A DNA stretch of 64,000 bases from JAWCQZ01 sp038869515 [NCBI: Halobacteria archaeon] (lineage in GTDB: Archaea; Halobacteriota; Syntropharchaeia; JACQPP01): NCBI GenBank assembly GCA_038869515.1, contig JAWCQZ010000004.1:1-64000 (forward strand), given 5' to 3'. This document shows positions 19,611 through 64,000 of this stretch, piece by piece (the stretch's first letter is position 1; each line of letters begins with the position of its first letter). The notes beneath the pieces are model-generated. The model did no database searches and was not told where the DNA came from. It saw only the letters and a program-made list of their open reading frames with translations. The position numbers and the translations under genes are program-made.

Positions 19611-19656
19611 TGCTGCCGCTCCATTCGGGAACTCTCTCGTCGCCAACGGAGCTATC

Positions 19657-41606: not shown

Positions 41607-41623
41607 TGCGTTTCTCCCTCCCA

Positions 41624-41637
41624 TACGTTATAACGTA
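41624..41637 (-). promoter_or_regulatory. Palindromic TATA element of giant A
   Basis: tacgttataacgta is a perfect 14-bp palindrome with the TATA box at its centre, 25 bp before ATG 41606. A dimeric regulator binding here would block the TATA-binding protein. Confidence 0.5.
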
Positions 41638-42039: not shown

Positions 42040-43155
42040 TCATCGCTTCCCCTCGTACCGCTTCATGGACTGCAGCAGCGACTCGGTGTAGACCTCGGCC
42101 ATGCGGAAGCGCCCCTCTTTCAACTTGTCCTTGGCCAGCTTCAGTTCCAGCTCCAGGTCGGTGGTGTCGATGCCCTTCTTCTTCCAGTCGGCGAAGGTCT
42201 GCTCGATCTGGTCCAGCTTCGTGGCGTAGGTCTTGTACATTTCGAGGTCCCTGTCGGGGATCTTGTGCGCCTCGTGGAGCGGCGGCCGGAAGTGGACGAA
42301 GATGGGCTTGCCCCGGTTGTACTTCGGGTGGGCCACCATGCCGACGCCGATTTCCAGCTTGGTGCAGCGGACGGCGTACTCCTCGCCGTACTTCGCCTTC
42401 AGACGGTCGGTGTCGGTGGTGGACTTGGTGTGGAGCTGGACCTCCATCAGGGCGTTGGAGCGGAGTTCCTCGCGGAAGTCTCCCGACACCTGGGAAACCA
42501 TCAGCATCCCGATGCCCCACTTGCGGAACTCGCGGGCGCCCTTCTCCAGCGCGATGTAGCCGCCCTTGCCTCCGTACTTCTCGAGGAGCCGGTGGATTTC
42601 GTCGAAGACCACCAGCAACCGGAGGTCGATGGACTCCTCCCACTGCATCTGGAACACCGTGTCGATGATGTTCATGACCGCCTGGTCGTACTCGCCGGGC
42701 CGGAGTTTGTTCAGAGTGAAGACCGTGATTTCGCCCGGGTTCATGTATTTCTTGAAGTCGATGCGGACGTTCGGGTCCGTGACCTCGTAGATGATGCCCT
42801 TGAAGGGCCGGGCGTCCTCGGGCTTCATGCCGTGCTTCGGGTAGGCCTTGAAGATCTGGGGGTCCTTGTTCGGGCGCACGAACCCGGTCCATTGGGCCGT
42901 GGGGTCGAAGCAGACCACGGGAATCTTCAACTTGAGCACTTCCTCGACAATCACGCTCGCGGAGACCGACTTCCCGGAGCCGGTGGCGCCCGCGGTGATG
43001 CAGTGGGTCTTGAGGTCCATCGGCTCCCACTCGAGCTTGACGTCGGTCTCCGCCACCTTGCCGAGCCACATGGGGCCCTCGGGGAGGTCGGTGTAGTCGC
43101 TCGCCAGCAGGTAGCGGGCCTTCTTCTCGCGGCGGGCGCGGAGGATGCGCCGGAT
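42040..43155 (-). other. HerA/FtsK-superfamily ATPase domain of giant B
   Basis: Cytoplasmic domain after the membrane helix: basic linker (RIRRILRARREKKARYLL), LGKVAETDVKLEWEPMDLKT, Walker A GATGSGKS (42967-42990), CFDPTAQWTGF, Walker B LLVVFDEIHRLL (42583-42618 with FDEIH at 42592-42606), then the QVSGDF and HTKS segments that in HerA/VirB4 proteins include the sensor Gln and arginine finger region. Relatives act as hexameric pumps for DNA or protein. The HAS-barrel of true HerA is not obvious. The last about 60 residues form a charged helix. Confidence 0.85.
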
Positions 43156-46100
43156 GCGCCAGTAGGCGTAGAGGCCGGGGATGCCGGCCCCCAGGGCCAG
43201 GACGAGCCAGAACATCCAGTCGGCGAAGATGAACTCGCCCAGGGGCACTCCGGCCTGGAGCGAGAAGGTGTCGATCGCCGAGGCGGTGAAGCCGTTGTAG
43301 GATGCGTCGGTCTGGATGACGTAGCCTCCGGGCCGGGTGTCGCGGGGGATGTCCACCTTCTCGACGAAGGAGAGGGTGGTCTCGATGGCCCGTGTGTCGG
43401 CCCTGCGGGCCACGATGTTGTCGTTTTCGTCGCGGACCGTGTAGGAGAGATTTACGTCGTAGCGCGCCTTGGAGCCCTGGTTGATGAGGCCGACGATGAA
43501 CCGGACGGGCTGCCCCTCCTTGATGAAGCCCGACAGGACGTTCACCTTCACGTCGAGGAGCCCCGCCTCCCTCTCGGTCTTGACCACGATGGTCACCGGG
43601 ATGCGCCGCAGGACCGGGGCCGTCCCGGCGCCGGAGTAGGAGACCAGGATGTCGCCGAGGTAGGTCCGCTCGGGGGTGGTCTCCCGGGTGGTGATGAACA
43701 TCCGCTGGGCGAAGAGTTGGTTGGCGTCCACCCGCACGTCCACGTTCCCGTTGCTCCCGCCCTCGAACCGGATGAGGGGCGAGATGTCCCCGAGGGCGAC
43801 CAGTTTCGCGGTCACGGTGGCGGCCGTGGGGTTCACGAGGATGATGGAGCGGTTCCGGGTCTCTCCGGGCTTCAGCCGCTCCTCGATGAGGTCGGTCTGG
43901 ATGTTCAAGGCGGCTCCGGAGGGCTGGGCCGCGGAGACCGAGACGGAGGCCGCCCCTCCGCCTCCGCCGCCCCCGCCACCCGCTGCCGCCGTCGTGGTTG
44001 TGGTCCCAGTCCCGGTTCCGGTCGTCGTGGTCGTCGTCTGCCCCCCTCCCGCGGTCACGACGATGGCGGGCCGCGCCGCGAGGACGTAGGCCGACCCGAA
44101 GGTGTTGACGTTGACCGCGAAGGTCTGGTTCACGACGTCGAGGGTGACGGCGGAGTCGGTCCTCGGGTAGGTGGTCCACGTCCCGCCGCAGGTCCGGGTG
44201 AGGAAGTTCCAGTTGGCGCAGACCAGCATCATGAGGTCGTCGAACGTGCCGATTTGGCTCGTGAAGGACTGCAACTTGAAGGGGACGGTGGCCCCTCCGG
44301 ACTCGCCGAAGCCGTTCCCATTCTTGCTGACTCCCCAGATGGAGAGAATCTTGGGCGTGTAGGTGACGTTGACGTTGTTCACCACCTCGGTGATGTTGGG
44401 GACGCCGGTCAGGCTCGGGGCGGGCGGGCTGTCGAACCGGAGGGGGTCGGTGAGGTTGGCGCTGAAGTTCACGTTCCGGAGGAGGACGGAGCGGTCGCCG
44501 TAGACGTCAATGAGGACGTCGTAGGCTCCGGGGACCACGACGGTGCCGGTGTAGCGGCCGGTCGTGTTGTTGGTGGAGATGACGCCGTTGGTGCCCGCGG
44601 AGCGGACGATGTCCCGGGGTGTGTGGACCACCGGGTCGAAGGCGGTCAGCGCCCGGCTCCGGTAGAAGGTGATGTTGATGGGGACCTGGGTGCCGACCGC
44701 GTCTGTCGCCGCGCCGTCAATCGCGAACCTCCCGTTGTCGCCCAGGGCCGGGTTGTAGACCAGAATCCAGGAAGAGTTGGTCGTGCTGCCCGCCGTCGAG
44801 GAGTCGCAGGAGGCGGCGGGGTAGGTGGTGTCGTTGTCGCATGCGGTGACGAGGAGAGTGTAGAATCCGGGGCCGTTGAAGTCGCCGGCGGCGATGGTGG
44901 CGGCGCCCGACGTGAAGTTGGTCTGCGGGGGCGTGAGGTTGATCCGGGCCACCGTCTTGGTGTAGTTGTTGGGGCCGTGGATGGCGACCGTGATGTTGCG
45001 GATGCCCGAGCCCGCGAAGCCGCCGACCGCGTCGTCGAGGGTGTAGTTGTAGGCGGCGGACGTGTTGTTGGCGACGGTCACCGGGTCAGAGACGTTGACC
45101 TTCGGCGCGCATGCGTCGCGGTAGAGGAGGGCCTTCGTGCTGTCCGTGGAGGTCTCCCCGGCCAGAGTGGCCGAGATTTCGAGGGCGTAGGTGATGCGGC
45201 AGGCGTCGGTCCGGGCCGGGGCGGAGAAGGTGAGGTTCCAGCCTCCCGAGGCGTTCATCGCTCCCGGGGTGACCGACACCGTCGCCCCGTTGACGCGGAC
45301 GCTCCAGTTGATGGCGTTGGGGTTGGAGGGGGCCGCGCCTTTGTCGAGGGTGGTGGCCTGCACGGTGATTTGGTCCGCAGGGCTCACGAGGTAGGAGGGC
45401 CGGACGTCGTGGACCTGCGTCGTGAAGCCGATGATGGTCACGGGCAGGAAGGAGACGTTGAGGTTGCCGAGGTTGTCAATCGCGTAGATGTCGAGGCTCT
45501 TGACTCCGGCCTGGAGCGGACTCACGTTGACGTTGTTGAGGGTGAACGTGGTGTTGCCGGAATTGTTGGACATCGGCACGATGAGCAGGGTGTTGTTGTT
45601 GATGAGGGTCAGGTTCAGGAGGACCGCCCGGACTCCGGAGAAGGTGTCGTTGACGGCCACCGTGAAGTTGGCCGTCTCGCCCGGCTTGTAGGTCGAGGCG
45701 TTGGTGCCGTTGCCCCACGCCCACGGCCCCGCGTTGTCCACCGTCACCCCGAAGGAGAGGTTCGCCGTGGTGGCCCCTCCGGCCCGGTCCACCGCTGTCG
45801 CGTTCAGGGCGTAGGCGCCGCTCGGCAGCCGGTCCACGTGCCAGAGAAGGGAGCAGTTGTAGGCGGGACCCGCCACGCTCCCGTTGAAGGTCCAGTCCCG
45901 CGCCGCCGGGAAGGAGCCCACGGGCTGGGCGGCGACGCCGTTGCAGGCGAGCGACGTGAAGTGGGAGGGCGAGGGAGCGGCGAGGTTCCCGAGGCCCTGG
46001 ATGGCGACGGTCGTGTTGGAGAAGTTGGAGCCGTTGCCCGAGGCGGGGGTGTCGTTGAACCAGAGGGTGACGCCGGCCTCGCTGCTCCCGTTGGAGGCGC

Positions 46101-49100
46101 GGAGGGTGAGGTTGCGGAGGGCGAAGTCGGTGACATTGAGGGTGATGTTGACCCACTGGGTCCCGTTGCAGGGGGCCCACCCGTCGGCGCAGGTCGCGGT
46201 CCAGGTGGTCCCGCTGGCGAAGGTCCGGTTGGCGGCGTTGGTCCCGTGGACGGGGGCGGCGGTGTCCCTGTAGAGGGTGAGGACCACCTGCGCCGTGTTG
46301 TTGACGCTGTCGTTCGCGAAGAGCGTGAGGATGTTGGTCCCCTCGGTGAAGTTCGCGATGAGCAGGCTCGTGTTCCGGAAGTTCCCGTTGACGACCTCGA
46401 ACCCGTAGGTGGTGTTGCCGGAGCCCGTCTGGAGAGTGTACCACGTCTGGTTCAGGATGAAATTGTCCGTGACGGAAACGTTGAGCGCGAAGTTCCCGTT
46501 CCACGTGGAGCCGTTCGGCGGGGCGAGGACGGTCAGGACCGGCCGGTCGGCGTCCACCCGGACCGACGCGTTGGAGTGGTTGGTGAAGGCGTTGCTTGCG
46601 TTGTCGGTCGCCGTCGCGCTGATGTTGTAGACCCCGGTCGAGACGTTGGCCGGGATGGAGACGTTGAGGACGAAGGTGGTGTTGTTGAACGTGGAATTCA
46701 CCGGGAAGGTGGTGTTGACCGCAGTGAAGGTCGAGTTGCCGACGACGATGCGGACGCTCGCCGGGTTCGCGTCCAGCAGGGCGAGGGTGGCCGGCAGGGT
46801 CGTGTTGGCGGCGAGGGTCGCGTTCGCGGAGGCGTTGGGGGCGAGGACCTGGACCTGGGGCGCGGTGTTGTCCACGATGACCGTCTTGTTGCTGGTGGAG
46901 GTGTTGCCTCCAGACTCCGTCGCGGAGAGCATCAGGATGTAGGTCCCGTCGGAGTCGAGGGTCGTGTCCCAGTCCGCCAGTTTCCCGGAACTCACGTTGG
47001 TCGAGGAGTTGACAAGGAGCCTCTTCTCCGTCAGGTTCGTGTAGAGGAGCCGGACCGAGTAGTTGACGAGGGTCTGGGTCGAGGTCGCGTTGCCGCTCAC
47101 GTTCACCGTCCCCCGGACAGCGGAGCCGTCGGCCGGGCTGGCGATGTCCACCTGGAGGCCGCCCTGGACGGTGAAGACGACGGAGACGGAGTCGAGGACG
47201 CCGAGGGTGGCGTTGCGGACCGTGTAGTTCTCCGCGAAGGCCCCCGTCGCGTGGGCGGGCGGGATGGTGTGGGTCGCCGTGACGCTCTGGTTCTGGCCGG
47301 GGTTCAGCGTGAAATTGGCCGGGGAGAACCCGGAGGAGAGTGTGCAGTTGGAGGTCTCGCAGACCATCAGCGGGAAGATGTCCTCCACCGGGACGTTGCC
47401 GACGTTGAGGACGACGAAGGACCCGGCCTGGGAGCCGCTCACCCCCGTCTCGGGCAGCGCCTGGGAGGCGATGCGGACCGCGCGGATGACCGAGACGGTC
47501 AGGTTCAGGCTGGTGTTGTTGGCACCCGAGGTCGCGTCGGGGTTGGTCCAGTTGATGACGAGGTTGAGGGTGTAGTTCCCCGGGGGCGTCGAGTTGTTGG
47601 CCGTGAGGCTGGCGAAGAGGCTCTTGCCGGCGGAGGAGACGTTCCCGTAGTTGAGGAAGGTGGTGTTCCAGGAGAAGTTGGCCGTGTTCTGGAGGGTTGC
47701 GTTCGCATTGACGGCGAGCGCCCCGACCAGATTCAGGAGGGTGAGGTTCACCGGCAGGGTCTGGCTCTGGGTCGCGTTCACGGACGCGAAGACCGGCTTC
47801 GGGTCCTGGAGGCCGAGGGCCGTCTTCGCGACGACTGTGACGTTGACGCTGGCGGAGCAGTTGTTGATGCCCGAGGTGTCGGAGGCGCAGACCCGGAGGG
47901 CGTAGTCGCCGGCGGTCCCGTTGCTCCAGGAGATGTTCCAGATACCGTCCAGGGTCGTGCCGCTGTTCAGGGTCAGGTTCCCGTAGTCGCTTCCGTTGAC
48001 CTGGAGCCAGACCCCGGAGATGGCGTCGCTGTCCGCCACCCGGGCGGTGACGTTGGTGGCCTCGACGATGGCGCCGATCTTGGAGGGGGCCGCGGAGGCG
48101 TTGGCGACGTTGGGCGGGAAGTTCACCACGTGGAGGATGACCGCCGTGTAGTTGAGCGGCTGGCTCGCGTGGGTGATCTCCCGGATGGGGAACTCCAGGA
48201 GGTAGTCGCCCGGGCTGCACGACTGGGCCGCAGTGCAGCGGTACTTGACGGCGACGGAGCGGTTGAACAGGGGCGTGACGTTGTAGATGGTGAAGGGCTC
48301 GATGAGGGCCGTGGTGACGTTGCCGTTGATGAAGATGCGCCAGGTGAGTTCCTCGTTGCCCGTGTTGTGGATGGTGATGTTGCCGAGGGTCCCGGTGGAG
48401 TTGGTCGGGATGGTGACCACCGGGACGTTGCTGATGTTGCCCCCGATGAACGCGGTGGTCTGGCAGAAGTTGGTGTGGTTCATCGTGAAGTTGACGTGGA
48501 GGCCGCACCTGTAGTTGTTGTCGGCGGGGACCGTCACGTTGATTTTGACGTCGTCGGTGCGCGGTCCGGCGGAGGACTGGGCTGTGAGCCGCACCGTCAG
48601 GAAGTAGTTGGCGGGGGCCTGGCCGGCGGGGACGAAGAGGGAGAGGTTGGGGGGTGAGGCGGTGGTGTTGTACCACTGACCCGCCTCCAGCGTCCCCAGG
48701 TTGGCCGGGAGCGTGAAGTTGCAGTCGGGGCAGTGGGGGAGCGTCTCGCCCGGCTCCGGCACATGGCCGATGGTCGAGAGGGTGTGGCTGGCGAAGAGGG
48801 CGGAGAAGTTCAGGTCGGTGAGGATGTCGTTGCCCTCGTTGGTGATGTTCAGGACATGGGCGATCTGGGTGCCGTGGGGCTGGGAACCTCCGTTGGGCGG
48901 CGGGACGACCGACTGGGTGATGTTCAGGATGGGGTTGGAGGCGACCTCGTAGACGGTGGAGTTGGTGTGGGATGCGAAGGTGTTGTCCGGGTTCCGCCAT
49001 GTGGCGTTGCCGTTCAGGACAATGGGGCCCGGCGGGGTGGCGGCGAGCACCTCGACGGTCAGCCCCCACCGGTAGGTCCCGTTGCCGCGAATCTGGTTCT

Positions 49101-55100: not shown

Positions 55101-58100
55101 CCGTCGGGGTCACGGCGTCCACCGCGGGGTTGCCGAAGCGGTCGCGGTCCCGGACCCGGACCGAGAGGGTCGAGTTGTTGGCGGAGGACCAGTTGAACCG
55201 GTCAATCTGGACCCCGTCTCCCTGGGCGGGGTCCTGGTCCACCCGGACGTCGTCCTTCTGGATGGTCATCGTCTTGTTCGGGACGGTCTCGCCGGTGAAG
55301 TTCCCGGGGTCGGTGGCGTTGAACTTGAAGTAGCCGACTTCGCCCTGCCGGGTGGTGTTGTAGGGGTCGAAGGTGATGTTGAACGCCCTCCGGACGAAGT
55401 TGGAGCCGCCGGAGGCCCCCTGGCAGGACTGGTTGCCCAGGAGGACCCACGGCGCGGTGGAGTTGTTCTGGCGCCAGAGGTAGACGGTGAAGACATCGTT
55501 GTCCTGGTCGCGGCACTCCACCACGAACCGCCACCGCTCGCCCCAGCCCGCGGCGTTGCCCGACTTGTTGGTGGAGTCGCCGGCGAGGGCGGAGTCGTCG
55601 AGGTCGAGGGTCGCATACTGGACCTCGGGGCTTGTGACGAGGCGGAAGGTGCCGTTGACGGTCGTGGTGTTCAGCGTGTAGAAGGGCGCCGAGACAGTGA
55701 GCGAGATGTTCCAGTCGCCGAGGTTCTTCGTCCCCGTGCCCACGGTCGCGGTGTAGTTCCCGTCGCCGAGGTCGGTGATGCTGGAGTTGTCAATCGTGAA
55801 GGAGTCGGCGGCCGCGACGCAGGCCGTCCCGACGCGGCAGCCCTGGAGTTGCCGCGTGGTGTTGTTGAGGCCGCCGCAGTCGTCCCGGACGGTGAAGTTG
55901 ACGGTGAGGACCGCCCCCTTCGAGATGTTCTGGCCGGCCGGGTAGGTCACGGTCGCGTTCTCGATGGTGCCGTTCACCTGGAGGGTGAATGTGGAGGAAT
56001 TGTTCGGGTGCTTGAAGCCGTCGGGCTCCCCGGCGGCCGCGGGGATGACCCCCATCCGCCACTGCTGGATTCCGGGGCGGTAGGTGCAGTCGGGGTTCAC
56101 CGACTGGTTCCAGTAGCCCGTGGCGGTGGTGGACATGTTGGCGAAGGGGCTGGTGTAGTTGAAGCCGTCCTTGGTGATGTAGAGGCGGCCCGGCACCCCG
56201 GAGCCCGCGTAGCCGCCGGAGGGCTGGATGTCGAGGTCGAAGACGCGGGTGCTGAGGGCGATGGAGTCGCTGCCGTTCCGGAAGACGAGGCCCGCGTCGC
56301 CCGCGACATGCTGCGGCCACATGTCGCTCTCCTCGACCACGTATTCGATGACCGCGGTGTCGTTCGCGGTGAAGGAGGTCCCGCCGCTGCGGGGGTCGTT
56401 GGCGTCGTCGGTCGCGTTCATCTTGGAGTTCCAGGTCCCGTTGTTGTCGTCGGGGTTGTTCCCGTTGGCGGAATACCACACCGTGGAGAACTCTGTGTAG
56501 TTGCCCTCGCACGGGGCGGCGCAGGTGACGGAGCCGAGGAGGGTCATGACCAGGGGCACGCCGTTCGTGGCGCAGGTCCCCGAGGCGCACATGTGCCAGA
56601 CGCGCACGGTGTTCTGGTCCCCGTCCTCGTCGCTCACGTTGGCGCTCCAGTAGAACCGCTCCTCCCAGGAGCCGTTCCTGCCCGCGTCGCCGTTGTCCAC
56701 GGAGCCGGTCCGCAGGCTGACGTTCCAGAAGACCAGTTTGGTCTGGAGGAACAGCCCGTCGAAGTTGCCCGCGGGGACCGGCCGGTCCGCCGGGTAGTCC
56801 TTTCGCAGGGTGGCGTTGGAGTGGAAGGTCTTGTTGCTGGCCATCGTGACGTTGTAGCCCTTGGCGGGCTTGCCGAGGGTGTCGAAGTCGCAGGAGTAGT
56901 TGCCGTCGCCGAGGTCGGTGGCGGGGCAGGTGTAGTTGGTCCCGGTCGCCTGGGACTCGAGGTAGAAGGTCACGCTGGCGCCGGGCACGAGGGCGCCGCA
57001 GTCGTCCGTGACGTTTCCGTAGAGAGTGACGTTGGTGCCCTCGCCCGACCAGTTCGCGTCGCGCCGGAGGAACTCCGCGCCCGAGGTCGCGTTGGGGGAG
57101 GTGATGTTGTTGCTCAGGCGGCCGAGGATGGTGAGGCTCAGGTTGGTGGAGTTGTTGTCGAAGTAGTGGGAGTCCTGCCAGAGGCCGCCGCGCCAGGTCC
57201 GGACTCCCGGGACGTAGGAGCAGTCCGGCGTGAACGATGCGTTGACGAATCCGCCGAGAGCCGTGGTGGTGTTGAGGGGCGGCCCGAACGTGGTGTTGTT
57301 CCGGGTGACCCAGAGGGTCCCGTTCCGGCCCGCCTCGACGTCGAGGCTGCGGTTGAGGTCTGTCGCCCGGAGGCTCAGGCTGACCGGCGAGCCCCGGGCC
57401 ACAGAGGAGCCGTTCCCGGCGACGTGGCTGACGGAGGCGGTGTCCTTGGTGAAGGCGGGGGCCGTCACGTTGCCGCTGATATTGGCGTCGGGCCCCGCCG
57501 TCACGTTGAACCGGAAGAGGACCGGGTTGGACTGGTTGAAGAGGAAGTCGGAGCCGTTGAAACCGTTGCCGAGGGCCGCCGAGACGTTCACCGCGCAGGT
57601 CCGGAAGACGGCGGCTTGACCCGGGTCCGCCACGGCGCCCAGGGTGGTGTTGCCCCGGCCGACCCACCCGGTGGTGTTGTTGGTCCAGGTCTGGAGCCGG
57701 CAGGTGACGGCCTCGCCCTGGAGGTCGCGGACCTGGATGGAGAAGTTGTAGGCGTCGCCCCAGGCGCCGGCGGTGCGGTTGACGGCCGGGCTCTGCCACT
57801 CCGGCGCCGTGCCGGTCAGGTTGATGCGGGCGGCGAAGGTGGTGTTGTTGGTCCGGTAGCAGCCGCTGGCGTTGGCGCAGGAGGGGTCCTTCTCGACCCC
57901 GATCCGCAGGTCCCAGAGGCCCGAGTTGTGGGCCCAGGTCGCCCAGGTGCAGTTGTAGGAGCCGTTCGAGGAGTTGTTGACCGGGGTCGTGCAGGACTCG
58001 TAGTTGCTGGTCACCGGGTCCCGGAGCTCGATGCGGACGGCGGTGGTGTTGCTCAGGAGACCCTCCCCGGCGGCGTCGGTGGAGACGTTGAACTGAATCG

Positions 58101-61100
58101 TCACGTTTTCGCCGATGGGGACGACGGTGGCCGCGGGGGGCGTGAGGTTGATGACGCGCAGTTGGCCGAAGACGGTGAAAGAGCGGTTGGTGTCGATGAA
58201 GTCGGTGGTGAAGTTGCCGTCCCCGGCGACCCCCGCCCGCCAGACGTGGATGCCGGTGTTGTAGGTCTCGTTCGGGTCGAAGTCGAACTCCACCCAGCCG
58301 GTTGCGTTCGTCGCCGTCACGTAGGTGTCCCAGGACGAGAGGTTGCTCAGGTTCCGGGTCACCCACACCTCGACCCGCGCCCCGGAGTGGACCGCCTCCT
58401 CGGTGCCGGTCCGGGTGGTGTTGGTGACGTCAATGGCCTGGGCGATGAACTTGTCGGTCTCCGTGCCGCTCCGGTTCACCGAGGAGTTCCAGGCCACCGA
58501 GCTCTCCTTCATCTGGGTGGTGTGGGGCCGGATGGTGAGGGTCTGGATGGTCTCCCCGCAGGCGGGGAAGGGCGCCGGGTTCGCCTCGCAGGTCAGGCCG
58601 ACCGCGTCGGTGCCGTTGATTTTGTACTCCCAGACCGCGACCTCGTCCTTGGTGAAGGTGCGCTCCCAGAAGAGGGCGGTCAGGTCGCACTGGCCTCCCG
58701 CCTGCTGGGCCGCGACGCAGGTGCGGTTGCCCATGCTGGTCCACTGGCTCGCTCCCTGGAGTCGGATGTAGAGGGTGAGGTTCACGTCGTTCGAGTCGGG
58801 GTCGGAGACCACGCCGCTGAAGTTCACCGGCCAGCCCCACACCAGTTCGTTGTTGTTGCCGACGGTCCCGCCCTGCTGGGTGCCCCGCGTCCCGACGCCG
58901 CCGTGGCCGTAGTCCACGTTGGGCCGGGCGGCGAGCATGAAACGGTTGTCGGGCTCGACCGTGGTGGTGTTGGTGGTGTTGTTCACGTACCAGGAGCGGT
59001 TGGCCGTCACCGTGATGTTGGTCAGGCCGTAGCCGGAGACCCCGTTCAGCAGGTTCAGCGTCGCCGCGGAGACCGTGCAGTTGTAGATGCCCAGGCCGTC
59101 GTAGATGAGGCTCCCGTCGCAGGCGCGGCTGTCGGCGCCGAGGGTGACATTCATCGAGGCGACCGCGCCGGTGACCCCCGCGCTCACGCCGTCGAGGTCG
59201 GGGGCGCCCGAGCAGTAGAGGTCGGAGACGTTGACCCGGAGGGTCACCGGGTCGACGTTCTTCACCGCGACAACGCTGGTGTTGGGGTTGCTGATGTTGA
59301 GGGCGAGGGCGCCCCAGACGTTGACCGTGAAGTTGCTCGAGTTCCCGGCCAGGGTCGTCCCGGTCGCGGCCATCTCCAGTTTCCACTTCTGGACCCCGGC
59401 GGCGCGGCTGCACTCGGGCTTCCAGGTCTTGTTCCACCACCCGGAGGCCGAGCCGCCGCCGCCCTCCTGCGTGTTCGACGCCGTGAACGAGTCGTTGTTC
59501 GCCGAGTAGTTCGTGGTGACGTGGAGGGTCGGGGTGGGGAAGAGGAGCCCCGAGGTCGCCGGGTCGAGGTAGGTGTACTTCAACTGGTCCACGATGCGGA
59601 CCCGGAACGTCGAGGTGTTGGAATTCCGGAGCGCCGAGGAGTCGTCGCCGGCGTTGATGACGAAGCCGACGGGGTCCTTGTCCACGGTGAAGGTCGAGTT
59701 GGTCGTGTTGTTGAAGAAGGCCTTGGGGTCTGTCGCCCGCCACTCGATGCTCCACGTGGTGAGTTCATCGGCGGAACCGGTGTCGAAGAACGTTTCGTTG
59801 AAGGAGACGGTGAGGTTCACGGGGTCGGTCACCGACTGGGTGCGGACAATCTGCCGGTAGGTCGGGGCGCTGCGGGTGAGCCGCAATTCCACGGTGAAGT
59901 CGTCGAGGTCCTCGTCGGTGATGCGGACCGAGAAGTTCCAGTACTGGCCGAACCCGTTCGTACCCGACTGGGTGACGTTGGCCTGCCCGGAGAAGAAGGG
60001 CCGGGTGATGAGGGTGAAGGTCCCGTTCTGAGCCGGGTTGGTCCACGTCGTGTTGTTGGTGTTGAAATCGGCGAGGCTCGCCACCGCGGTGATGTTCCAG
60101 GTCCCGGCGGGCCAGGCCGACTTGTTGGTGACGAAGGTGGTGTTGTAGCGGCCCGGGGAGTTGGCGATGTAGGCGGCGGCCTGGGTGTAGGTCGTCCCCC
60201 CGTTCCGGACGGTCACGGTCACCGTGGAGGCGTTGACGGGGGCCCCGCAGTCGTCGCGGACCGTGATGTTCACCGTGACGTTCTCCTCACCCTGGACGAA
60301 GGTCCGGTTCAAGCCGCCGCTCTGGTTGTAGGTCGCCGACTCCAGTTCGAGGCCGCCGACGATGCGGAGCGTGAAATTGCTCGAGTTCTTCCGCTCGTAG
60401 AAGAACGCGGAGGCGTTGGTCCCGCCGGTCCAGTTCTGGAACCCGACCTCGTAGGCGCAGTCGGGGTTGAACGACACGTTCAGGTATCCGTTGGAGACAA
60501 CGGAGAAGTTCTCGTATCCGAGCAGCGCGCTGCTGTTGTTCCTGTAGACCCAGACAGAGCCGTTCTCGTTGTTGACGCCGGAGTTCAGGTTGTCGGTGTC
60601 GTTGATGCGGAGTTTCAGGACGATGGAGTCGCTCCCGCTCCGGTTCACGGACTGCCCGGTGCCGTTCGCTTCCAGGGAGATGGAAACGTTGTCTTTCTCG
60701 AAGAGGGGGCCGAAGGAGGTCACGTTGAACGGTTCGGAGGAGTTGCCGTCGTTGACGTTCCACCGGAACTGGTTCGCGTTGCCGGAGGAGTTGTTGGCGT
60801 AGTCGAGGGGGGTGAAGGTCCCGTTGCCCAGGGAGATGAGGCAGTTCCCGACGCCGCCCGCGACCACCGTCGAGCCTCGGGCGACGAAGGTGCCGTTGGT
60901 CCGGGTGTAGAGCGTGCAGGTCACGTTGTCGCCCTCGGGGTCGTTCACCGTGATGTTGTAGGTGTAGTTGTAGCCCCAGCCCTCCTGCGCGGGGGCGACC
61001 GAGGCGTTGGTGGCGCTGGGCGCCCGGTTCTCCAGCCAGAAGAAGTCGGAGAAGTTGGTGGAGTTGATGTTGAAGAAGACGCCCTTGTCCACGCTGACGA

Positions 61101-64000
61101 GCACCGAGTAGTTGCCCTCGGGCCAGGTCTTGTTGGTGGTGAAGTTGCAGGAGTAGTTGCCGGCGGGGGAGACGCTGTCCGGGGCGCAGGTCGGGGAGGA
61201 GAAGGCGCCGTTCACCAGTCGCAGGGTGTTGAACGTGAGGCCGGTCTGGTTCCCCTCCTGCGCCCAGCAGTCGGTGGAGACGTTGAAGGCGATGCCGATG
61301 GAGTCCGAGGCGTTGAACAGCGGGCGGCCGGCGACGGCGTTGTAGGAGGTGTTGTTGAGGTAGTTCGTGGTGATGAGCAGCTCCCCGACGAGGTCGAAGG
61401 TGGGGTTCCCCGAGGCGTTGTTGACCGAGGAGTTGTTGGTGTCGTAGTAGAAGTCGCCGAACGTGCCGGCGAACCAGTTCCGCGTCCCGTTGGGGTAGTT
61501 GCAGCCCGGGTTGAAGAGGAAGGAGCGCGTCCCGTCCATGGAGGTGTTCGCGGTGGAACCGGGAACGGGCGACTCGATGTCAGTGTAGTAGCGACTCCGG
61601 GCGTCCCAGGCGGGAAAGGTCGGTGTGGTGTTCATGTCGGTGATGCTGATGTTGAGCCAGGCCGCGCTGTTCGGCTGGGCGTCGGAGCGGTTGATTGAGG
61701 TCGGCGCGGTCATCAGGTGGACCGTCACGTTGTCCTTGACGAGGTTGACCGCGACGGTGGAGGAGGTGTTGTTGAAGAGCCGCAGGTCCACAGCGGCGAA
61801 GTTGAAATACCAGGTCGAGTTGTTGGCGAACTGGGCCTTGGTGAAGTTGAAGTCGAACCCGAGGATGGCGGAGGCCGCGGGGCCCGCCCAGGTCTGGTTC
61901 TGCTCGGTGGAGAAGTTGGCGGTCGAGTTCGCGGAGCGCCGGAAGGAGACCGTGTCGGTGTCGCCCACCGCCGGAATCTCGTCGTCGTTGACGGTCACGG
62001 TGTAGGAGCGGTTGCGCCCCCACGCGGAGGTCACCAGGTTCACCGAGGCGCCCGTCAACTCGGGCCGCTGGCCGAGGTAGAAGGCGGGGTTCAGGGAGAA
62101 GTTCCCCGTGGAGTAGTAGGGGGCGTTCTTCGACGAGTTGAGCCAGATGAGGTAGAGGCCGAAGGGGGAGGCCCCGGCGGAGGTGTAGTTCGAAAGATAG
62201 ACGCCGCCCGGCACGTTGGTGGCCGCGTCCACGCTCCCCGGGGGCGTGGTGTTGTCGTTGAACAGGACGTTGTAGGTGACGGTGGCGGCGTCCACGAAGC
62301 CGCAGTCGTCCTGGACGGTCCCGTTGATGGGGACGACCCCCGCGCTGACCCCCGCCTTGAGCCGGGTGTAGTTGTCGCTGCCGCCCAGAGGGAGGGCAAT
62401 CTGGTTCGAGAGATACGACGTCACGTTCACGGAGAAGTTGGCGCCGAGGGAAACGTTGGAGGCGCTCGCGTTGTAGTAGTTGTTGCCGTCGAAGAGCGCC
62501 CGCCACCTCTGGGGCCCCACCTGGTAGGCGCAGCCGGGGTCGAAGGGCACCGGCAGGTTGGTTCCGGTCGTGTTGAGGAACTTGGAGCCGCCCCAGACCG
62601 CGGCCGTGAGTGCCGGTCCGAAAATCGTGGCGCCGGTGTCGTTCGTGACCTCGTAGGAGCCGGTGACAGTCCCGTCACCGGGCAGGACGATAAGGTGTTC
62701 TCCGGGGACCCCGCCAAGGAGGGAGTCCACGACCCGGACCTGCAGGCTGGTGTTCTGGGCCCCCGTCCGGTTCACGCTGGAGCCGTTGCCCTGGACGTGG
62801 ACGAAGGAGGCACCGCGCTTCGTGACGGTGAAGTTCGCCCCGTAGAGGGTGGTCGCGTTGCCGTAGGCGTCGGTCGCGTTCACCCGCCACTCCCAGGTCC
62901 CGACGGCGCCGTACTGGAACTTGGGGTTGCACGAGACGTTCCGGTTTTCGGGGTCGGCGACCGGGTTCGCCGGGGACACGGCGCAGGCGGTGACGACTCC
63001 GGGGCTGTTCACGCTCAGGTCCTGCCAGCCCGCAGGGCAGGTCGAGCCCGACTGGCCGCTGGTGGCGCAATTCGCCTCGAACTTCACCGTCACGGTGTCG
63101 TCGTCGTCGTTCAGCGTGGCGTTGAAGACGAAGTTGGGCCCCCCGGTCCCGAGGGCCCAGACGGCGGTCCCGGGCACGATGCGCGACGCGCTCAGGACCG
63201 GCGGGACCTGAATGAAGAAGCCACGCCCCGTGGTGTCGTTCGACTCGGTGGTGGTGTTGAAGTTGTAGAAGGTCCGCGAGGCGTTCAGCGTGACGTTGTA
63301 TTTGCCCCCGGGCATCTGGGCGATGTCCACGGTCCGGTTGCAGGAGTAGGTGCCGTTGGAGGCGTTGTCGGTGGGCGCGCATGTCCCGGCGGTGAAGTTC
63401 AGCCCGGCGTGCTCGAAGGAGAAGTTCGCCCAGGCGTCGGCGACGGCGGTCCCGTTGTCGGAGGTGAGGTTGCCGCGGAAGAGGATGGTGGAGCCGTTGC
63501 CGAAATTGAGGCCCTGGGGCGAGGTGATGTTGAGGCGGAGGTCGCCCACGACGGTGATGGCTGTGTCGCTGGAGTTGTTGACCACGTAGTAGGCGTCGCC
63601 CGGCGCGTCCATGCGCACCCCCATGCGCCATTCCTGGGCGCCGACGAAGACGTGGGAGGCAGGGTCGTAGGAGCGGTAGCAGGTCCCGCCGGAGGTCGTG
63701 TTGAACCCGATGGTCTCGAACGTCCCCGTTCCCGAACCGTTCGTCGTAACGTAGAGGGTGCAGTTGGCCTCGGGCCGGGGCCCGGTGCCGACCGGGGCGG
63801 AGCCGTTGGTCCGGTCGAGGACCTGGACGTTCAGGGAGGCGTTCTGGCTCCCGGAGCGGTTTACGGTCGCGGGCGGGCTGGCCATGACCGTGAACTCGAC
63901 CTCGTCCTTCTGGACGGCGTAGGCGCCGCTCGTGGCGCTGACGCCGCCCACCTGGTCGTCCACCGAGACCTGCCAGTTCATCGTCCCGACGTCGGCGGAG
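42040..64000 (-). CDS. Giant surface protein B with cytoplasmic HerA/FtsK-type ATPase (partial, more than 7,300 residues)
   Basis: The frame is open to the window end, so the true N-terminus is missing. From N to C: at least 11 tandem repeats of about 340-400 residues (to about 51300); further Ig-like/NEW3-type modules full of Asn-X-Thr sequons (51300-44100); a Thr/Gly-rich linker (TTTTTTGTGTGTTTT, then Gly9, about 43950-44040); two CARDB-like domains; one membrane helix (WMFWLVLALGAGIPGLYAYW, about 43156-43220); and a 370-residue cytoplasmic ATPase. Several repeats end with a TxDCG or DDCG segment and paired Cys, suggesting disulfides. No frameshift is seen over 21.9 kb. It could be a contact-dependent DNA or protein translocation device, a giant adhesin with force- or energy-driven signalling, or predation machinery. 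None is proven. Confidence 0.85.
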   Translation of the reverse strand, partial: SADVGTMNWQVSVDDQVGGVSATSGAYAVQKDEVEFTVMASPPATVNRSGSQNASLNVQVLDRTNGSAPVGTGPRPEANCTLYVTTNGSGTGTFETIGFNTTSGGTCYRSYDPASHVFVGAQEWRMGVRMDAPGDAYYVVNNSSDTAITVVGDLRLNITSPQGLNFGNGSTILFRGNLTSDNGTAVADAWANFSFEHAGLNFTAGTCAPTDNASNGTYSCNRTVDIAQMPGGKYNVTLNASRTFYNFNTTTESNDTTGRGFFIQVPPVLSASRIVPGTAVWALGTGGPNFVFNATLNDDDDTVTVKFEANCATSGQSGSTCPAGWQDLSVNSPGVVTACAVSPANPVADPENRNVSCNPKFQYGAVGTWEWRVNATDAYGNATTLYGANFTVTKRGASFVHVQGNGSSVNRTGAQNTSLQVRVVDSLLGGVPGEHLIVLPGDGTVTGSYEVTNDTGATIFGPALTAAVWGGSKFLNTTGTNLPVPFDPGCAYQVGPQRWRALFDGNNYYNASASNVSLGANFSVNVTSYLSNQIALPLGGSDNYTRLKAGVSAGVVPINGTVQDDCGFVDAATVTYNVLFNDNTTPPGSVDAATNVPGGVYLSNYTSAGASPFGLYLIWLNSSKNAPYYSTGNFSLNPAFYLGQRPELTGASVNLVTSAWGRNRSYTVTVNDDEIPAVGDTDTVSFRRSANSTANFSTEQNQTWAGPAASAILGFDFNFTKAQFANNSTWYFNFAAVDLRLFNNTSSTVAVNLVKDNVTVHLMTAPTSINRSDAQPNSAAWLNISITDMNTTPTFPAWDARSRYYTDIESPVPGSTANTSMDGTRSFLFNPGCNYPNGTRNWFAGTFGDFYYDTNNSSVNNASGNPTFDLVGELLITTNYLNNTSYNAVAGRPLFNASDSIGIAFNVSTDCWAQEGNQTGLTFNTLRLVNGAFSSPTCAPDSVSPAGNYSCNFTTNKTWPEGNYSVLVSVDKGVFFNINSTNFSDFFWLENRAPSATNASVAPAQEGWGYNYTYNITVNDPEGDNVTCTLYTRTNGTFVARGSTVVAGGVGNCLISLGNGTFTPLDYANNSSGNANQFRWNVNDGNSSEPFNVTSFGPLFEKDNVSISLEANGTGQSVNRSGSDSIVLKLRINDTDNLNSGVNNENGSVWVYRNNSSALLGYENFSVVSNGYLNVSFNPDCAYEVGFQNWTGGTNASAFFYERKNSSNFTLRIVGGLELESATYNQSGGLNRTFVQGEENVTVNITVRDDCGAPVNASTVTVTVRNGGTTYTQAAAYIANSPGRYNTTFVTNKSAWPAGTWNITAVASLADFNTNNTTWTNPAQNGTFTLITRPFFSGQANVTQSGTNGFGQYWNFSVRITDEDLDDFTVELRLTRSAPTYRQIVRTQSVTDPVNLTVSFNETFFDTGSADELTTWSIEWRATDPKAFFNNTTNSTFTVDKDPVGFVINAGDDSSALRNSNTSTFRVRIVDQLKYTYLDPATSGLLFPTPTLHVTTNYSANNDSFTASNTQEGGGGSASGWWNKTWKPECSRAAGVQKWKLEMAATGTTLAGNSSNFTVNVWGALALNISNPNTSVVAVKNVDPVTLRVNVSDLYCSGAPDLDGVSAGVTGAVASMNVTLGADSRACDGSLIYDGLGIYNCTVSAATLNLLNGVSGYGLTNITVTANRSWYVNNTTNTTTVEPDNRFMLAARPNVDYGHGGVGTRGTQQGGTVGNNNELVWGWPVNFSGVVSDPDSNDVNLTLYIRLQGASQWTSMGNRTCVAAQQAGGQCDLTALFWERTFTKDEVAVWEYKINGTDAVGLTCEANPAPFPACGETIQTLTIRPHTTQMKESSVAWNSSVNRSGTETDKFIAQAIDVTNTTRTGTEEAVHSGARVEVWVTRNLSNLSSWDTYVTATNATGWVEFDFDPNETYNTGIHVWRAGVAGDGNFTTDFIDTNRSFTVFGQLRVINLTPPAATVVPIGENVTIQFNVSTDAAGEGLLSNTTAVRIELRDPVTSNYESCTTPVNNSSNGSYNCTWATWAHNSGLWDLRIGVEKDPSCANASGCYRTNNTTFAARINLTGTAPEWQSPAVNRTAGAWGDAYNFSIQVRDLQGEAVTCRLQTWTNNTTGWVGRGNTTLGAVADPGQAAVFRTCAVNVSAALGNGFNGSDFLFNQSNPVLFRFNVTAGPDANISGNVTAPAFTKDTASVSHVAGNGSSVARGSPVSLSLRATDLNRSLDVEAGRNGTLWVTRNNTTFGPPLNTTTALGGFVNASFTPDCSYVPGVRTWRGGLWQDSHYFDNNSTNLSLTILGRLSNNITSPNATSGAEFLRRDANWSGEGTNVTLYGNVTDDCGALVPGASVTFYLESQATGTNYTCPATDLGDGNYSCDFDTLGKPAKGYNVTMASNKTFHSNATLRKDYPADRPVPAGNFDGLFLQTKLVFWNVSLRTGSVDNGDAGRNGSWEERFYWSANVSDEDGDQNTVRVWHMCASGTCATNGVPLVMTLLGSVTCAAPCEGNYTEFSTVWYSANGNNPDDNNGTWNSKMNATDDANDPRSGGTSFTANDTAVIEYVVEESDMWPQHVAGDAGLVFRNGSDSIALSTRVFDLDIQPSGGYAGSGVPGRLYITKDGFNYTSPFANMSTTATGYWNQSVNPDCTYRPGIQQWRMGVIPAAAGEPDGFKHPNNSSTFTLQVNGTIENATVTYPAGQNISKGAVLTVNFTVRDDCGGLNNTTRQLQGCRVGTACVAAADSFTIDNSSITDLGDGNYTATVGTGTKNLGDWNISLTVSAPFYTLNTTTVNGTFRLVTSPEVQYATLDLDDSALAGDSTNKSGNAAGWGERWRFVVECRDQDNDVFTVYLWRQNNSTAPWVLLGNQSCQGASGGSNFVRRAFNITFDPYNTTRQGEVGYFKFNATDPGNFTGETVPNKTMTIQKDDVRVDQDPAQGDGVQIDRFNWSSANNSTLSVRVRDRDRFGNPAVDAVTPTVRGGIWITQNTTDLETASNYTFNASLVANASSYLAHAFNPGCSFRVGLQRWTAGTFGDSAYFDTNRSTVGGVSAVEKNYTLTVNGTLLVNLTSPGNGTVFNVGSQNPLLRFSQTTDCWTEDGQPVVSVKNIQLQRNETGNREGVVETCAPQNNETPFGNTGVFNCTFNTVACTLPAGPCAGGRYDIIVTVNNTNLSGFFYNNTTRYAQWMTFVNPPPNNTTANNTQAVNRTSGPWGGAYNFSVEVNDTAQDNVTCTLWFSNGTGVNVSKGNRTITGGLGTCSIIVDPRLGNGFNGGDIGTDNGFWFTLDDGTPENRVNTTTRPFPDLTADNVTLVVVAGNGSSVSRMGVNNTTLQASVFDNDTGNYTGNVSVRFNVTLNGNSWDDGNVVASNATGVASFAFDPNGPDPSGPPGYNYFAGVQNWMAEVADSRYNYTNTTGGGSNATLAIVGSFLVTPEPAVPANETEILRGSNLTLGVEVREDNLTFMTTANVSFTTVNITNSAENCPITSATGGIYECAFVSAGKGARSYNYTAAVNRTYFANTTFHHNGSVDQGAGTCTAPSGLCYAFFVGTKPTFANPLVKNQSSAFLQNINRTGWGENYTFQVQYTDEDRDPAYIVTLTLRKGLSVTNVSQSFLNDPDPTNKTLTFNINFSNGGDIGNWTYEFNAQDDENYPKSGGAIFTNNSTRQNISLEADDVTVIYFCNSATNSSGGCPSIDNKQIFRDDGAYSPGVRAIDQNLTAAIYDTDDGNFTGDDVTVAFYVTRDFNNTVFKQVGTAPTNTTGWARLPSFNPECGNNVTPGVTTGNKIYAAGTVLGAGSKDGWFKLVNSSNITASLGNGFATRIRSANWSTQVTHPLNNAYERGVEPVTFTGRLEDECFPVLGAVPSVTSATFQASYTGKTTPPSCSAPAGGDGQGNFSCTPDLNQYGKGFWDLRFDIVDSAFHPVVGGYTTGTVAKSKALFVAERPTLSNPDVQGSNNITAMWGSALTFRVTLNDGDSTAVNVTLLTTVNGTNYTMANRTEEPTDSVNPSNGEGKIVNRLVSLIPSFNCSHIGFNLFRFNATDNATYGRPVGYSSETGLFADGFPLNFTLTPDTVAFTFVEGDGATVLRNNSVNLTVRVNDTVRGTNVTAGHLVRFYISTNQTDFGTVVDAVTNVSGYATVNHTVNSTSQAARQTWKVGAGFADPGWNNSTCFVPANSSNATLDVVGKLVPAIEAPPPGTVLQRGQTVVLNATVRDEYLVNVPDATVGWRNASDGAGPVLAQQVGANANNSTLYTTTWLVNATSPRGPANLFANATLFHPNGTRLFSPGEVNVSVTVFGFSRIENITAQRNGPGDSGALNATTYNASNTDITVRCRVIDNDTVQPIDGYNVSFWKNGAFQGSNLTDASGNATFFYANSGDSPGSYNLTCSAADAPAFFYNITGGQRSMNITIQRPLRIDPAEMVFSNGTTVYRLDSLAPGKTVSTRINVTVQDSYVGVAASANVTFRNNTTLLANCTTDGLGRCGFEFNPPDSTTPQNYTLFVEANRTPQNDFNGTATTHIEVFGVLNVTFLTPANNSSLARVDEGNFTVKIEDELNQTVTAPVLVTYRNNTGVVLVASPLTPNPASNPATNYSVLWKPINNSETTGPKNLSGTAVASFFDSDTDFINFTITDKGQALMGFPPSIGADTSYPDPFTVTCRVITQGSGDFQSGAGIGSYPVVAYRQFTDPPEAELFINGTLENSTFYTNGTGHIAIPVTPPETGRLTFRCNIQTNASLLTTVDPGDSNASGFVRIRNTRAPVINNTTVVAPPEIEANNASTAIFFEANVTDEYGLNVVSPVQAVVTLPNATQEFYTMALQETYNITNSSLYTTGYRYAYNYIPKYDGAHTIHVRVTDKQDRLTGSAPLTNTSTPVAFTVRGTTTGRLEQNDTIFVPGVTFYSGVSNVVNFTFNNLGPTQAYDVRLLISDQSAPSRLRYTSTGSVTYTFNNTSVSRACAEGAQTRTNNITCTLNASFPALENQIRGNGTYRWGLTVEVLAATPPGPIVLNGNATWRNPDNTFASHTNSTVYEVASNPILNITQSVVPPPNGGSQPHGTQIAHVLNITNEGNDILTDLNFSALFASHTLSTIGHVPEPGETLPHCPDCNFTLPANLGTLEAGQWYNTTASPPNLSLFVPAGQAPANYFLTVRLTAQSSAGPRTDDVKINVTVPADNNYRCGLHVNFTMNHTNFCQTTAFIGGNISNVPVVTIPTNSTGTLGNITIHNTGNEELTWRIFINGNVTTALIEPFTIYNVTPLFNRSVAVKYRCTAAQSCSPGDYLLEFPIREITHASQPLNYTAVILHVVNFPPNVANASAAPSKIGAIVEATNVTARVADSDAISGVWLQVNGSDYGNLTLNSGTTLDGIWNISWSNGTAGDYALRVCASDTSGINNCSASVNVTVVAKTALGLQDPKPVFASVNATQSQTLPVNLTLLNLVGALAVNANATLQNTANFSWNTTFLNYGNVSSAGKSLFASLTANNSTPPGNYTLNLVINWTNPDATSGANNTSLNLTVSVIRAVRIASQALPETGVSGSQAGSFVVLNVGNVPVEDIFPLMVCETSNCTLSSGFSPANFTLNPGQNQSVTATHTIPPAHATGAFAENYTVRNATLGVLDSVSVVFTVQGGLQVDIASPADGSAVRGTVNVSGNATSTQTLVNYSVRLLYTNLTEKRLLVNSSTNVSSGKLADWDTTLDSDGTYILMLSATESGGNTSTSNKTVIVDNTAPQVQVLAPNASANATLAANTTLPATLALLDANPASVRIVVGNSTFTAVNTTFPVNSTFNNTTFVLNVSIPANVSTGVYNISATATDNASNAFTNHSNASVRVDADRPVLTVLAPPNGSTWNGNFALNVSVTDNFILNQTWYTLQTGSGNTTYGFEVVNGNFRNTSLLIANFTEGTNILTLFANDSVNNTAQVVLTLYRDTAAPVHGTNAANRTFASGTTWTATCADGWAPCNGTQWVNITLNVTDFALRNLTLRASNGSSEAGVTLWFNDTPASGNGSNFSNTTVAIQGLGNLAAPSPSHFTSLACNGVAAQPVGSFPAARDWTFNGSVAGPAYNCSLLWHVDRLPSGAYALNATAVDRAGGATTANLSFGVTVDNAGPWAWGNGTNASTYKPGETANFTVAVNDTFSGVRAVLLNLTLINNNTLLIVPMSNNSGNTTFTLNNVNVSPLQAGVKSLDIYAIDNLGNLNVSFLPVTIIGFTTQVHDVRPSYLVSPADQITVQATTLDKGAAPSNPNAINWSVRVNGATVSVTPGAMNASGGWNLTFSAPARTDACRITYALEISATLAGETSTDSTKALLYRDACAPKVNVSDPVTVANNTSAAYNYTLDDAVGGFAGSGIRNITVAIHGPNNYTKTVARINLTPPQTNFTSGAATIAAGDFNGPGFYTLLVTACDNDTTYPAASCDSSTAGSTTNSSWILVYNPALGDNGRFAIDGAATDAVGTQVPINITFYRSRALTAFDPVVHTPRDIVRSAGTNGVISTNNTTGRYTGTVVVPGAYDVLIDVYGDRSVLLRNVNFSANLTDPLRFDSPPAPSLTGVPNITEVVNNVNVTYTPKILSIWGVSKNGNGFGESGGATVPFKLQSFTSQIGTFDDLMMLVCANWNFLTRTCGGTWTTYPRTDSAVTLDVVNQTFAVNVNTFGSAYVLAARPAIVVTAGGGQTTTTTTGTGTGTTTTTAAAGGGGGGGGGAASVSVSAAQPSGAALNIQTDLIEERLKPGETRNRSIILVNPTAATVTAKLVALGDISPLIRFEGGSNGNVDVRVDANQLFAQRMFITTRETTPERTYLGDILVSYSGAGTAPVLRRIPVTIVVKTEREAGLLDVKVNVLSGFIKEGQPVRFIVGLINQGSKARYDVNLSYTVRDENDNIVARRADTRAIETTLSFVEKVDIPRDTRPGGYVIQTDASYNGFTASAIDTFSLQAGVPLGEFIFADWMFWLVLALGAGIPGLYAYWRIRRILRARREKKARYLLASDYTDLPEGPMWLGKVAETDVKLEWEPMDLKTHCITAGATGSGKSVSASVIVEEVLKLKIPVVCFDPTAQWTGFVRPNKDPQIFKAYPKHGMKPEDARPFKGIIYEVTDPNVRIDFKKYMNPGEITVFTLNKLRPGEYDQAVMNIIDTVFQMQWEESIDLRLLVVFDEIHRLLEKYGGKGGYIALEKGAREFRKWGIGMLMVSQVSGDFREELRSNALMEVQLHTKSTTDTDRLKAKYGEEYAVRCTKLEIGVGMVAHPKYNRGKPIFVHFRPPLHEAHKIPDRDLEMYKTYATKLDQIEQTFADWKKKGIDTTDLELELKLAKDKLKEGRFRMAEVYTESLLQSMKRYEGKR
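51300..64000 (-). repeat. Tandem protein-coding repeats in giant B
   Basis: Diverged units recur every about 1.02-1.19 kb, judged from the position of the (D)DCG/TDCW-type segment at roughly 62305, 61270, 60250, 59215, 58070, 57000, 55870, 54745, 53655, 52460 and 51385. Each unit has an RSGS-N-SL-VRV-D start, an NPDC-Y-G-Q-W segment, the DCG segment, a YN-T---N-T-Y strand and a WG--YNFSV-V-D module with one more Cys. DNA identity between units is low, so they are old. The array continues beyond the window. Confidence 0.75.

What the first reader, a model, noticed from the sequence alone, without database searches (positions are those of the whole stretch)
42040..64000. Giant repeat ectodomain fused through one membrane helix to a HerA/FtsK-type ATPase
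The sequence shows one uninterrupted frame of more than 7,300 codons whose C-terminus carries Walker A (GATGSGKS) and Walker B (FDEIH) of the HerA/VirB4/FtsK class, directly after a single membrane helix. HerA-class ATPases are known as hexameric DNA or protein pumps; giant glycosylated repeat proteins are known as surface adhesins. I know of no described system with both in one chain. A hexamer would place six fibres of several thousand residues around a membrane pump, suggesting a contact-driven translocation, conjugation-like or predatory device (inference).
Basis: partly seen in the sequence, partly recalled or inferred. Interest (0 to 1): 0.88.

Follow-up and report, generated by a model that had tools for sequence, protein, structure and literature searches.

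The report
Giant surface fibre with built-in motor
Some uncultured archaea make single proteins of about 1,400 to 11,000 residues that join a long, probably sugar-coated fibre outside the cell through one membrane helix to a HerA-type ATP-driven motor inside, a recurring design whose purpose is unproven but may be to power something at cell-to-cell contact.

Summary
Window 42040-63999 (-) is one open frame of 7,319 codons (N-terminus cut off by the window end): repeat-rich, sequon-dense ectodomain, one membrane helix, HerA-clade ATPase. It is not an assembly join. Of 156 genomes in the phylum of an Aenigmatarchaeota relative, 54 carry close homologues of the C-terminal module (E <= 4.6e-100), most in long open frames; so do 2 of 58 genomes in the class of the window's nearest relative. 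Two species have complete members of about 11,250 aa, 77% identical end to end. The ATPases form one clade apart from ordinary HerA; 51 of 54 mapped copies keep all catalytic motifs checked, including the trans arginine finger. The window lineage probably gained the gene horizontally. What the motor moves is unproven. My leading guess (about 0.4) is contact-linked translocation, most likely of DNA, against an anchoring or force-generating role: NurA is not adjacent in 12 genomes tested, and no multi-TM neighbour recurs beyond two loci. I rate it a new variant of a known kind.

The parts
42040..63999 (-). Giant ORF, 7,319 codons in view, 5' end cut off by the window edge
43243..63999 (-). Ectodomain: repeat-rich, Ig-like beta-sandwich stretch, 486 sequons. 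Gmad2 Ig-like domain passes its Pfam cut-off; MG2, Big_1 and others are below theirs
43951..44049 (-). Thr/Gly-rich low-complexity linker before the membrane-proximal domains
43243..43800 (-). Membrane-proximal domains, NEW3- and TRAP-beta-like (both below Pfam cut-off); similar stretches occur without ATPase in other long frames
   Evidence: weak matches to about query 41-226 only
43159..43233 (-). Single transmembrane helix (about residues 6923-6947), sequence poorly conserved
42043..43143 (-). Cytosolic HerA-clade ATPase domain with C-terminal helical tail
42967..42990 (-). Walker A GATGSGKS (K7010)
42592..42606 (-). Walker B FDEIH (D7133, E7134)
42523..42525 (-). R7159, aligned with the trans arginine finger R381 of Sulfolobus HerA
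33948..41624 (-). Second giant surface protein, 2,558 aa: hydrophobic N-terminus, NEW3 and MG2 domains above cut-off, C-terminal membrane helix, Pro-rich tail; next gene downstream. Its C-terminal 328 aa match proteins near family members elsewhere

Best explanation
It is the ATPase subunit of an archaeal surface module for which I found no description. Each chain is an Ig-like, probably N-glycosylated fibre outside the cell, held by one membrane helix, with a HerA-clade motor domain in the cytosol. The motor domains most likely close into a ring that hydrolyses ATP between subunits and so bundles several fibres around one membrane site (inferred from the conserved trans arginine finger). A soluble coiled-coil protein and, in many loci, a second large surface protein complete the module. 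The working model I judge most likely is that the fibres, some with a beta-propeller head, bind a partner cell or surface, and the ring then drives a polymer, most likely DNA, through or along the membrane at the contact, as CedB/CedD are thought to do in Sulfolobales DNA exchange. Shown: fusion, topology signals, intact catalytic motifs, conserved partner gene, clade, spread. Inferred: hexamer, glycosylation, contact function, substrate.
For: Fusion recurs: 54 of 156 genomes of G002's phylum have matches at E <= 4.6e-100 (71 matches, 51 of them in open frames of at least 1,000 aa, 16 genomes with two or more; listing, recounted). All 39 ATPase domains aligned in A3 match DUF87 and HerA_C and NCBIfam CedD (best 3e-18) and HerA_Thermprot. 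PDB profile search: best hit HerA 4d2i, E 4.1e-14. 51 of 54 family ORFs keep Walker A, the post-beta2 Asp, Walker B DE, the arginine finger and SQ; the matching residues of Sulfolobus HerA (K154, D176, E356, R381) were shown by mutation to matter (PMC4351679, passages). Coiled-coil neighbour for 46 of 54. The translocation reading rests on CedD being the top curated model for the window domain, one locus with a type IV pilus cluster between two family ATPases and ParA/MinD genes within about 7 kb of 4 members, recalling the ParA/MinD gene of Ted loci (PMC9905601, passages).
Against: No conserved channel-like (VirB6/CedA-like) neighbour: of 21 neighbours with four or more predicted helices within 8 kb, no group spans more than 2 loci. 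The membrane helix is the least conserved of the five segments compared (mean modal-residue frequency 0.34 against 0.69 in the ATPase), unlike a dedicated pore. NurA is found in 7 of 12 genomes, on another contig in 6 and about 49 kb away in 1. Pilus and ParA links are rare (1 and 4 loci). CedD scores are far below the curated cut-off (34-36 against 600 bits), and one Aenigmatarchaeota-phylum genome, G441, has two other genes that score better against CedD, also below the cut-off. Relaxases and CedA were not searched for by profile. No direct evidence of DNA binding or contact.
Confidence: 0.4

Rival explanations
1. Mechanical or scaffolding role: the ATPase ring does not pump a polymer but oligomerises, clusters, anchors or moves the fibres (an energised adhesin or S-layer-like stalk), with the coiled-coil protein linking the ring to the cell interior.
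For: The coiled-coil partner is the most constant neighbour found (46 of 54) while no multi-TM neighbour recurs beyond 2 loci and NurA is not adjacent; the membrane helix is poorly conserved; a similar membrane-proximal stretch occurs without ATPase in other long frames.
Against: The named relatives are mostly DNA-processing, conjugation or defence ATPases; conservation of catalytic residues suggests turnover, though that alone does not separate pumping from moving.
Confidence: 0.3
2. Outside-in sensor: ligand binding or pull on the ectodomain switches the cytosolic ATPase and coiled-coil partner, as in a receptor.
For: Topology of a type I receptor; beta-propeller near the N-terminus in the three complete members scanned; conserved cytosolic partner.
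Against: The recurring neighbours I found are coiled-coil, surface and small membrane proteins; signalling enzymes were not searched for by profile. Thousands of residues of stalk are more than a sensor needs (inference).
Confidence: 0.15
3. FtsK-like chromosome or division role: membrane-tethered HerA ring handles chromosomal DNA, and the ectodomain merely binds the S-layer.
For: Same membrane-plus-motor plan as FtsK (recalled); weak FtsK profile matches (27 of 39).
Against: Patchy presence (54 of 156 genomes; 2 of 58; genomes are MAGs of unstated completeness), two or more copies in 16 genomes and apparent horizontal transfer do not fit a core division gene.
Confidence: 0.08
4. Artefact: missed stop, frameshift or assembly join between an adhesin gene and an ATPase gene.
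For: Relatives are MAGs; N-terminus not seen in the window.
Against: Unbroken GC3 over the joint; same fusion in dozens of genomes, including complete 11,259 and 11,248 aa ORFs 76.6% identical over 11,263 columns.
Confidence: 0.02

Closest known systems
CedD / CedB (crenarchaeal DNA exchange, Ced) and TedB
   Same: Membrane-anchored HerA/VirB4-type ATPase in archaea; CedD is the top NCBIfam model for the window domain and matches 39 of 39; PMC11868833 (passages) describes CedD as TM + N-terminal domain + C-terminal ATPase, essential for DNA import
   Different: Scores far under the CedD cut-off; too little sequence between helix and ATPase for CedD's N-terminal domain; giant ectodomain and coiled-coil partner present; no recurring multi-TM neighbour
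HerA (HerA-NurA DNA end resection)
   Same: Clade of the ATPase; K154, D176, E356 and R381 equivalents invariant in the 39 aligned
   Different: Separate clade, membrane anchored, about 60 residues rather than about 150 before the Walker A lysine, no NurA neighbour
FtsK/SpoIIIE and TraG/VirD4 coupling proteins
   Same: Membrane segment followed by a superfamily motor (weak profile matches)
   Different: Those have several N-terminal helices and no giant ectodomain (recalled)
Zot / pI protein of filamentous phages
   Same: One chain with cytosolic superfamily ATPase, one helix and an outside domain (recalled); weak Zot profile match in 5 of 39
   Different: Order inverted (ATPase first) and small outside domain; works in phage assembly (recalled)
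Giant archaeal/bacterial surface adhesins and S-layer-like glycoproteins
   Same: Ig-like/NEW3 domains, sequon density, C-terminal membrane anchor
   Different: No motor domain in those known to me (recalled)

Membership tests
HerA-FtsK superfamily, HerA clade | Profile match above curated cut-off | tested here: met
   DUF87 33.1-34.1 bits vs 23.2; HerA_C 21.1 on the 586-aa piece but 23.1 on the ATPase domain alone, vs 22
HerA-FtsK superfamily, HerA clade | Walker A, Walker B DE, trans arginine finger, Gln at end of strand 4 (motif roles partly recalled) | tested here: met
   51 of 54 members; exceptions L096 (truncated at a masked stretch), L119, L125 long copy
HerA-FtsK superfamily, HerA clade | Hexameric ring | not testable with these tools
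   AF2 models poor with 3 rows (pLDDT 52 and 58); Foldseek still ranks HerA 4d2i first (E 1.5e-4, but TM-score only 0.36)
HerA-NurA DNA repair helicase | Genomic pairing with NurA | tested here: not met
   NurA in 7 of 12 genomes: another contig in 6, about 49 kb away on G320:C11 in 1 (places)
HerA-NurA DNA repair helicase | N-terminal region of about 150 residues before the Walker A lysine | tested here: not met
   About 60 residues from helix end to Walker A lysine; K154 in Sulfolobus HerA
CedD / Ced system | NCBIfam equivalog cut-off (600 bits) | tested here: not met
   34-36 bits for the window; over cut-off in 0 of 4 genomes, while one of 14 control genomes passes
CedD / Ced system | CedA-like channel and pilin neighbours | tested here: inconclusive
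   No multi-TM neighbour group in more than 2 loci; one pilus cluster in L125; CedA itself not searched by profile
VirB4/TraG type IV secretion | Curated profile match | tested here: not met
   TraC-F, SXT_TraD and VirB4_plasma models match 30, 25 and 20 of 39 weakly; for the window TraC-F and SXT_TraD score 14 bits against 567 and 366
Surface glycoprotein / adhesin | Secretion signal, beta-sandwich repeats, sequons, membrane anchor | tested here: met
   hydrophobic N-termini of complete relatives; the window's own N-terminus not seen
Surface glycoprotein / adhesin | Binding to cells or surfaces | not testable with these tools
   No assay; beta-propeller in the 3 complete members scanned

The most novel reading that the evidence does not exclude
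A new class of energised surface appendage: a ring of HerA motors, each continuous with its own fibre of several thousand residues, so that one gene product is at once host-recognition fibre, membrane base and ATP-driven translocase, used by Aenigmatarchaeota for contact-dependent exchange with partner cells and passed to other archaea as a module.
Probability: 0.3. Interest if true: 0.92.

Novelty: new variant of a known kind. Interest (0 to 1): 0.74.

Why it matters
It is a widespread, often multi-copy and apparently horizontally moved gene module in archaea that are hard to culture and thought to depend on other cells (recalled). It puts motor and fibre in one chain, so the question of how such cells connect with partners becomes testable by expressing one domain and imaging one structure. 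It also extends the HerA clade beyond DNA repair, Ced-type import and defence, and adds a soluble coiled-coil family whose three members scanned matched no Pfam or NCBIfam model above its cut-off.

Tried and rejected
Artefact or assembly join: rejected. Virus or plasmid origin: no relative in viral contigs or plasmids; phages not searched. NurA partnership: rejected. CedD membership: rejected by score. Coiled-coil partner as a known family: three members, no curated match above cut-off. A shared channel gene among neighbours: none beyond 2 loci. Structure models were poor because only three rows were allowed, so the Foldseek HerA match is weak support. Alignment A2 had its window row out of frame and was discarded for A3. 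A3 holds 39 of 41 sequences: L086 and L088 failed my Walker A pattern and were left out, but pass in the profile alignment. Literature on the fusion: in the titles and abstract openings listed I saw no description of it; one search gave the Ced papers and the HerA/NurA papers; the 2004 superfamily survey and the HerA structure paper are not held. Papers were read only as found passages (PMC11868833, PMC9905601, PMC4158269, PMC4858521, PMC4351679).

Full report
Observation. The frame at 42040-63999 on the minus strand is real: 7,319 codons in view, open at the window edge. Third-position GC is 0.94-0.97 in the 500-codon blocks and 0.96 over the membrane joint, and three long antisense ORFs show the bias in the wrong position. 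There are 486 N-x-S/T sequons before residue 6920 and none after 6945; in residues 1-6650 there are 484 against 136 expected from composition. Internal repeats, several of the top pairs offset by about 1,070-1,090 residues, cover 5,332 residues. One hydrophobic helix near residues 6923-6947 is followed by nine basic residues, the usual sign of an inside end. The N-terminus lies beyond the window and no genome is held for it.

The ATPase. The C-terminal domain matches DUF87/HerA above its cut-off and HerA structures by profile (best 4d2i, E 4.1e-14). All 39 aligned domains match DUF87 and HerA_C and the CedD and HerA_Thermprot models. K154, D176, E356 and R381 of Sulfolobus HerA, shown by mutation to matter (PMC4351679, passages), correspond through the printed alignments to invariant residues of the family (39 of 39). 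Of 54 mapped family ORFs, 51 keep the full motif set. R381 is the trans-acting arginine finger, so ring formation with catalysis between subunits is likely, though not shown. The three exceptions are a copy cut at a masked stretch (L096), a short copy in G157 lacking the Walker B glutamate and the finger (L119), and a G441 copy with an altered Walker A and SQ motif beside an intact one (L125).

Recurrence. A search of 156 genomes of the Aenigmatarchaeota relative's phylum gave 71 matches at E <= 4.6e-100 in 54 genomes, 51 of the 71 in open frames of 1,000 aa or more (listing, recounted). I mapped 8 of the 20 shorter ones: 6 run to a contig end, one lies at a masked stretch, and one (385 aa in L125) is a true short form. 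In a sample of 294 genomes from the phylum of the window's nearest relative only 2 have family-level hits, and the class search finds the same 2 of 58. Complete ORFs include 1,434 aa (L133), 2,204-2,210 aa (L084, L092), 2,909 aa (L002) and 2,945-2,978 aa (L072, L073, L075, L094, L100, L103, L129). G319 and G322 carry ORFs of 11,259 and 11,248 aa, 76.6% identical over 11,263 columns. Complete members begin with a hydrophobic signal or anchor, and the three scanned have a beta-propeller near the N-terminus. A tree of 88 ATPase domains puts all 54 family rows in one clade (98/96), apart from the ordinary HerA sampled; a 273-aa G001 fragment (L007) is its nearest outside row, on a long branch whose place is unsure. 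The window, L001 and L087 group together (99/99) inside a 27-row clade (99/93) whose other rows come from the Aenigmatarchaeota phylum, which points to horizontal gain in the window's lineage.

The module. For 46 of 54 family ORFs a coiled-coil homologue (116-1,122 aa; phmmer E < 1e-5) lies downstream on the same strand, 43 of the 46 within 152 bases and several overlapping. Eight lack it there: the window, L001, L097, L119, L132, both L125 copies and L086 (no sequence left). Only two coil homologues in the mapped loci were not that nearest partner: a second one just further down in L107, and one in G001, the L001 genome, so that lineage has a partner elsewhere. For 20 of 54 ORFs (44 with over 3 kb of downstream sequence) a sequon-rich secreted protein lies within the next four ORFs, 15 on the same strand and 5 on the other. 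The C-terminus of the window's 2,558-aa neighbour matches proteins in nine Aenigmatarchaeota-phylum loci as well as L001. Five loci of the 2,900-aa class have small one-helix proteins upstream. Rarer neighbours are ParA/MinD genes (4 loci) and one type IV pilus cluster lying between two family ATPases (L125). Of 21 neighbours with four or more predicted helices within 8 kb, no group spans more than 2 loci.

Mechanism. Shown: fusion, topology signals, intact catalytic residues, conserved partner, spread. Inferred: a ring that bundles several fibres, each perhaps 250-300 nm if extended at about 4 nm per Ig-like domain (recalled figure). I favour contact-linked translocation of a polymer, most likely DNA, because the top curated model for the window domain is CedD, a DNA-import ATPase (PMC11868833, passages), and because Ted loci also carry ParA/MinD genes (PMC9905601, passages). 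Against it, there is no recurring channel-like neighbour, the helix is the least conserved of five segments compared (0.34 against 0.69 in the ATPase), NurA is not adjacent in any of the 7 of 12 genomes that have it, and pilus and ParA links are few. A scaffold or force role for the ring is almost as likely. Relaxases, CedA and signalling enzymes were not searched for by profile.

Known or new. It is a member of the HerA-FtsK superfamily, HerA clade (profile and motif tests met). It is not a CedD (34-36 against 600 bits; G441 has two other genes that score higher), nor HerA-NurA. In the listings I saw no description of such a fusion; these cover open-licence papers only, and the 2004 superfamily survey is not held. 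I therefore call it a new variant of a known kind.

Limits. Structure models were poor (pLDDT 52 and 58), and the fold match to HerA (E 1.5e-4, TM-score 0.36) is supportive only. Spread beyond the two phyla was not testable. The window's own source is not known; its lineage is judged from the 85% identity of its ATPase domain to L001.

Noticed in passing
window 15325-20214 (+): Three genes in a row that look like SMC, ScpA and ScpB (read from their N-terminal sequences, not profile-tested), and a translation GTPase-like gene at 1892-3106 (-): looks like ordinary archaeal chromosome context.
   Followed up: no
L125 1-3948 and 16776-17933: Two family ATPases in one locus (G441): one without ectodomain (385 aa), one with several hydrophobic segments upstream and a Walker A Gly to Asp change; a type IV pilus cluster with a VWA protein lies between them.
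   Followed up: partly
L119 5534-6787 (-): Short 417-aa TM plus HerA protein without ectodomain, Walker B Glu and arginine finger lost: a likely inactive relative in G157.
   Followed up: partly
L103 15543-15770, L002 2095-2313, L072 2986-3255, L075 17427-17651, L094 4897-5522: Small conserved one- or two-helix proteins (72-111 aa, hydrophobic N-terminal part plus charged helix) just upstream of the 2,900-aa class of the fusion.
   Followed up: partly
family ATPase domains: NCBIfam 'serine-rich protein' NF033849 (1,163 positions) matches 27 of 39 domains (best 9.3e-11), hinting at another low-complexity protein with a HerA-like domain.
   Followed up: no
L076, L077, L105, L133: ParA/MinD-type ATPase genes near the coiled-coil partner.
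   Followed up: partly
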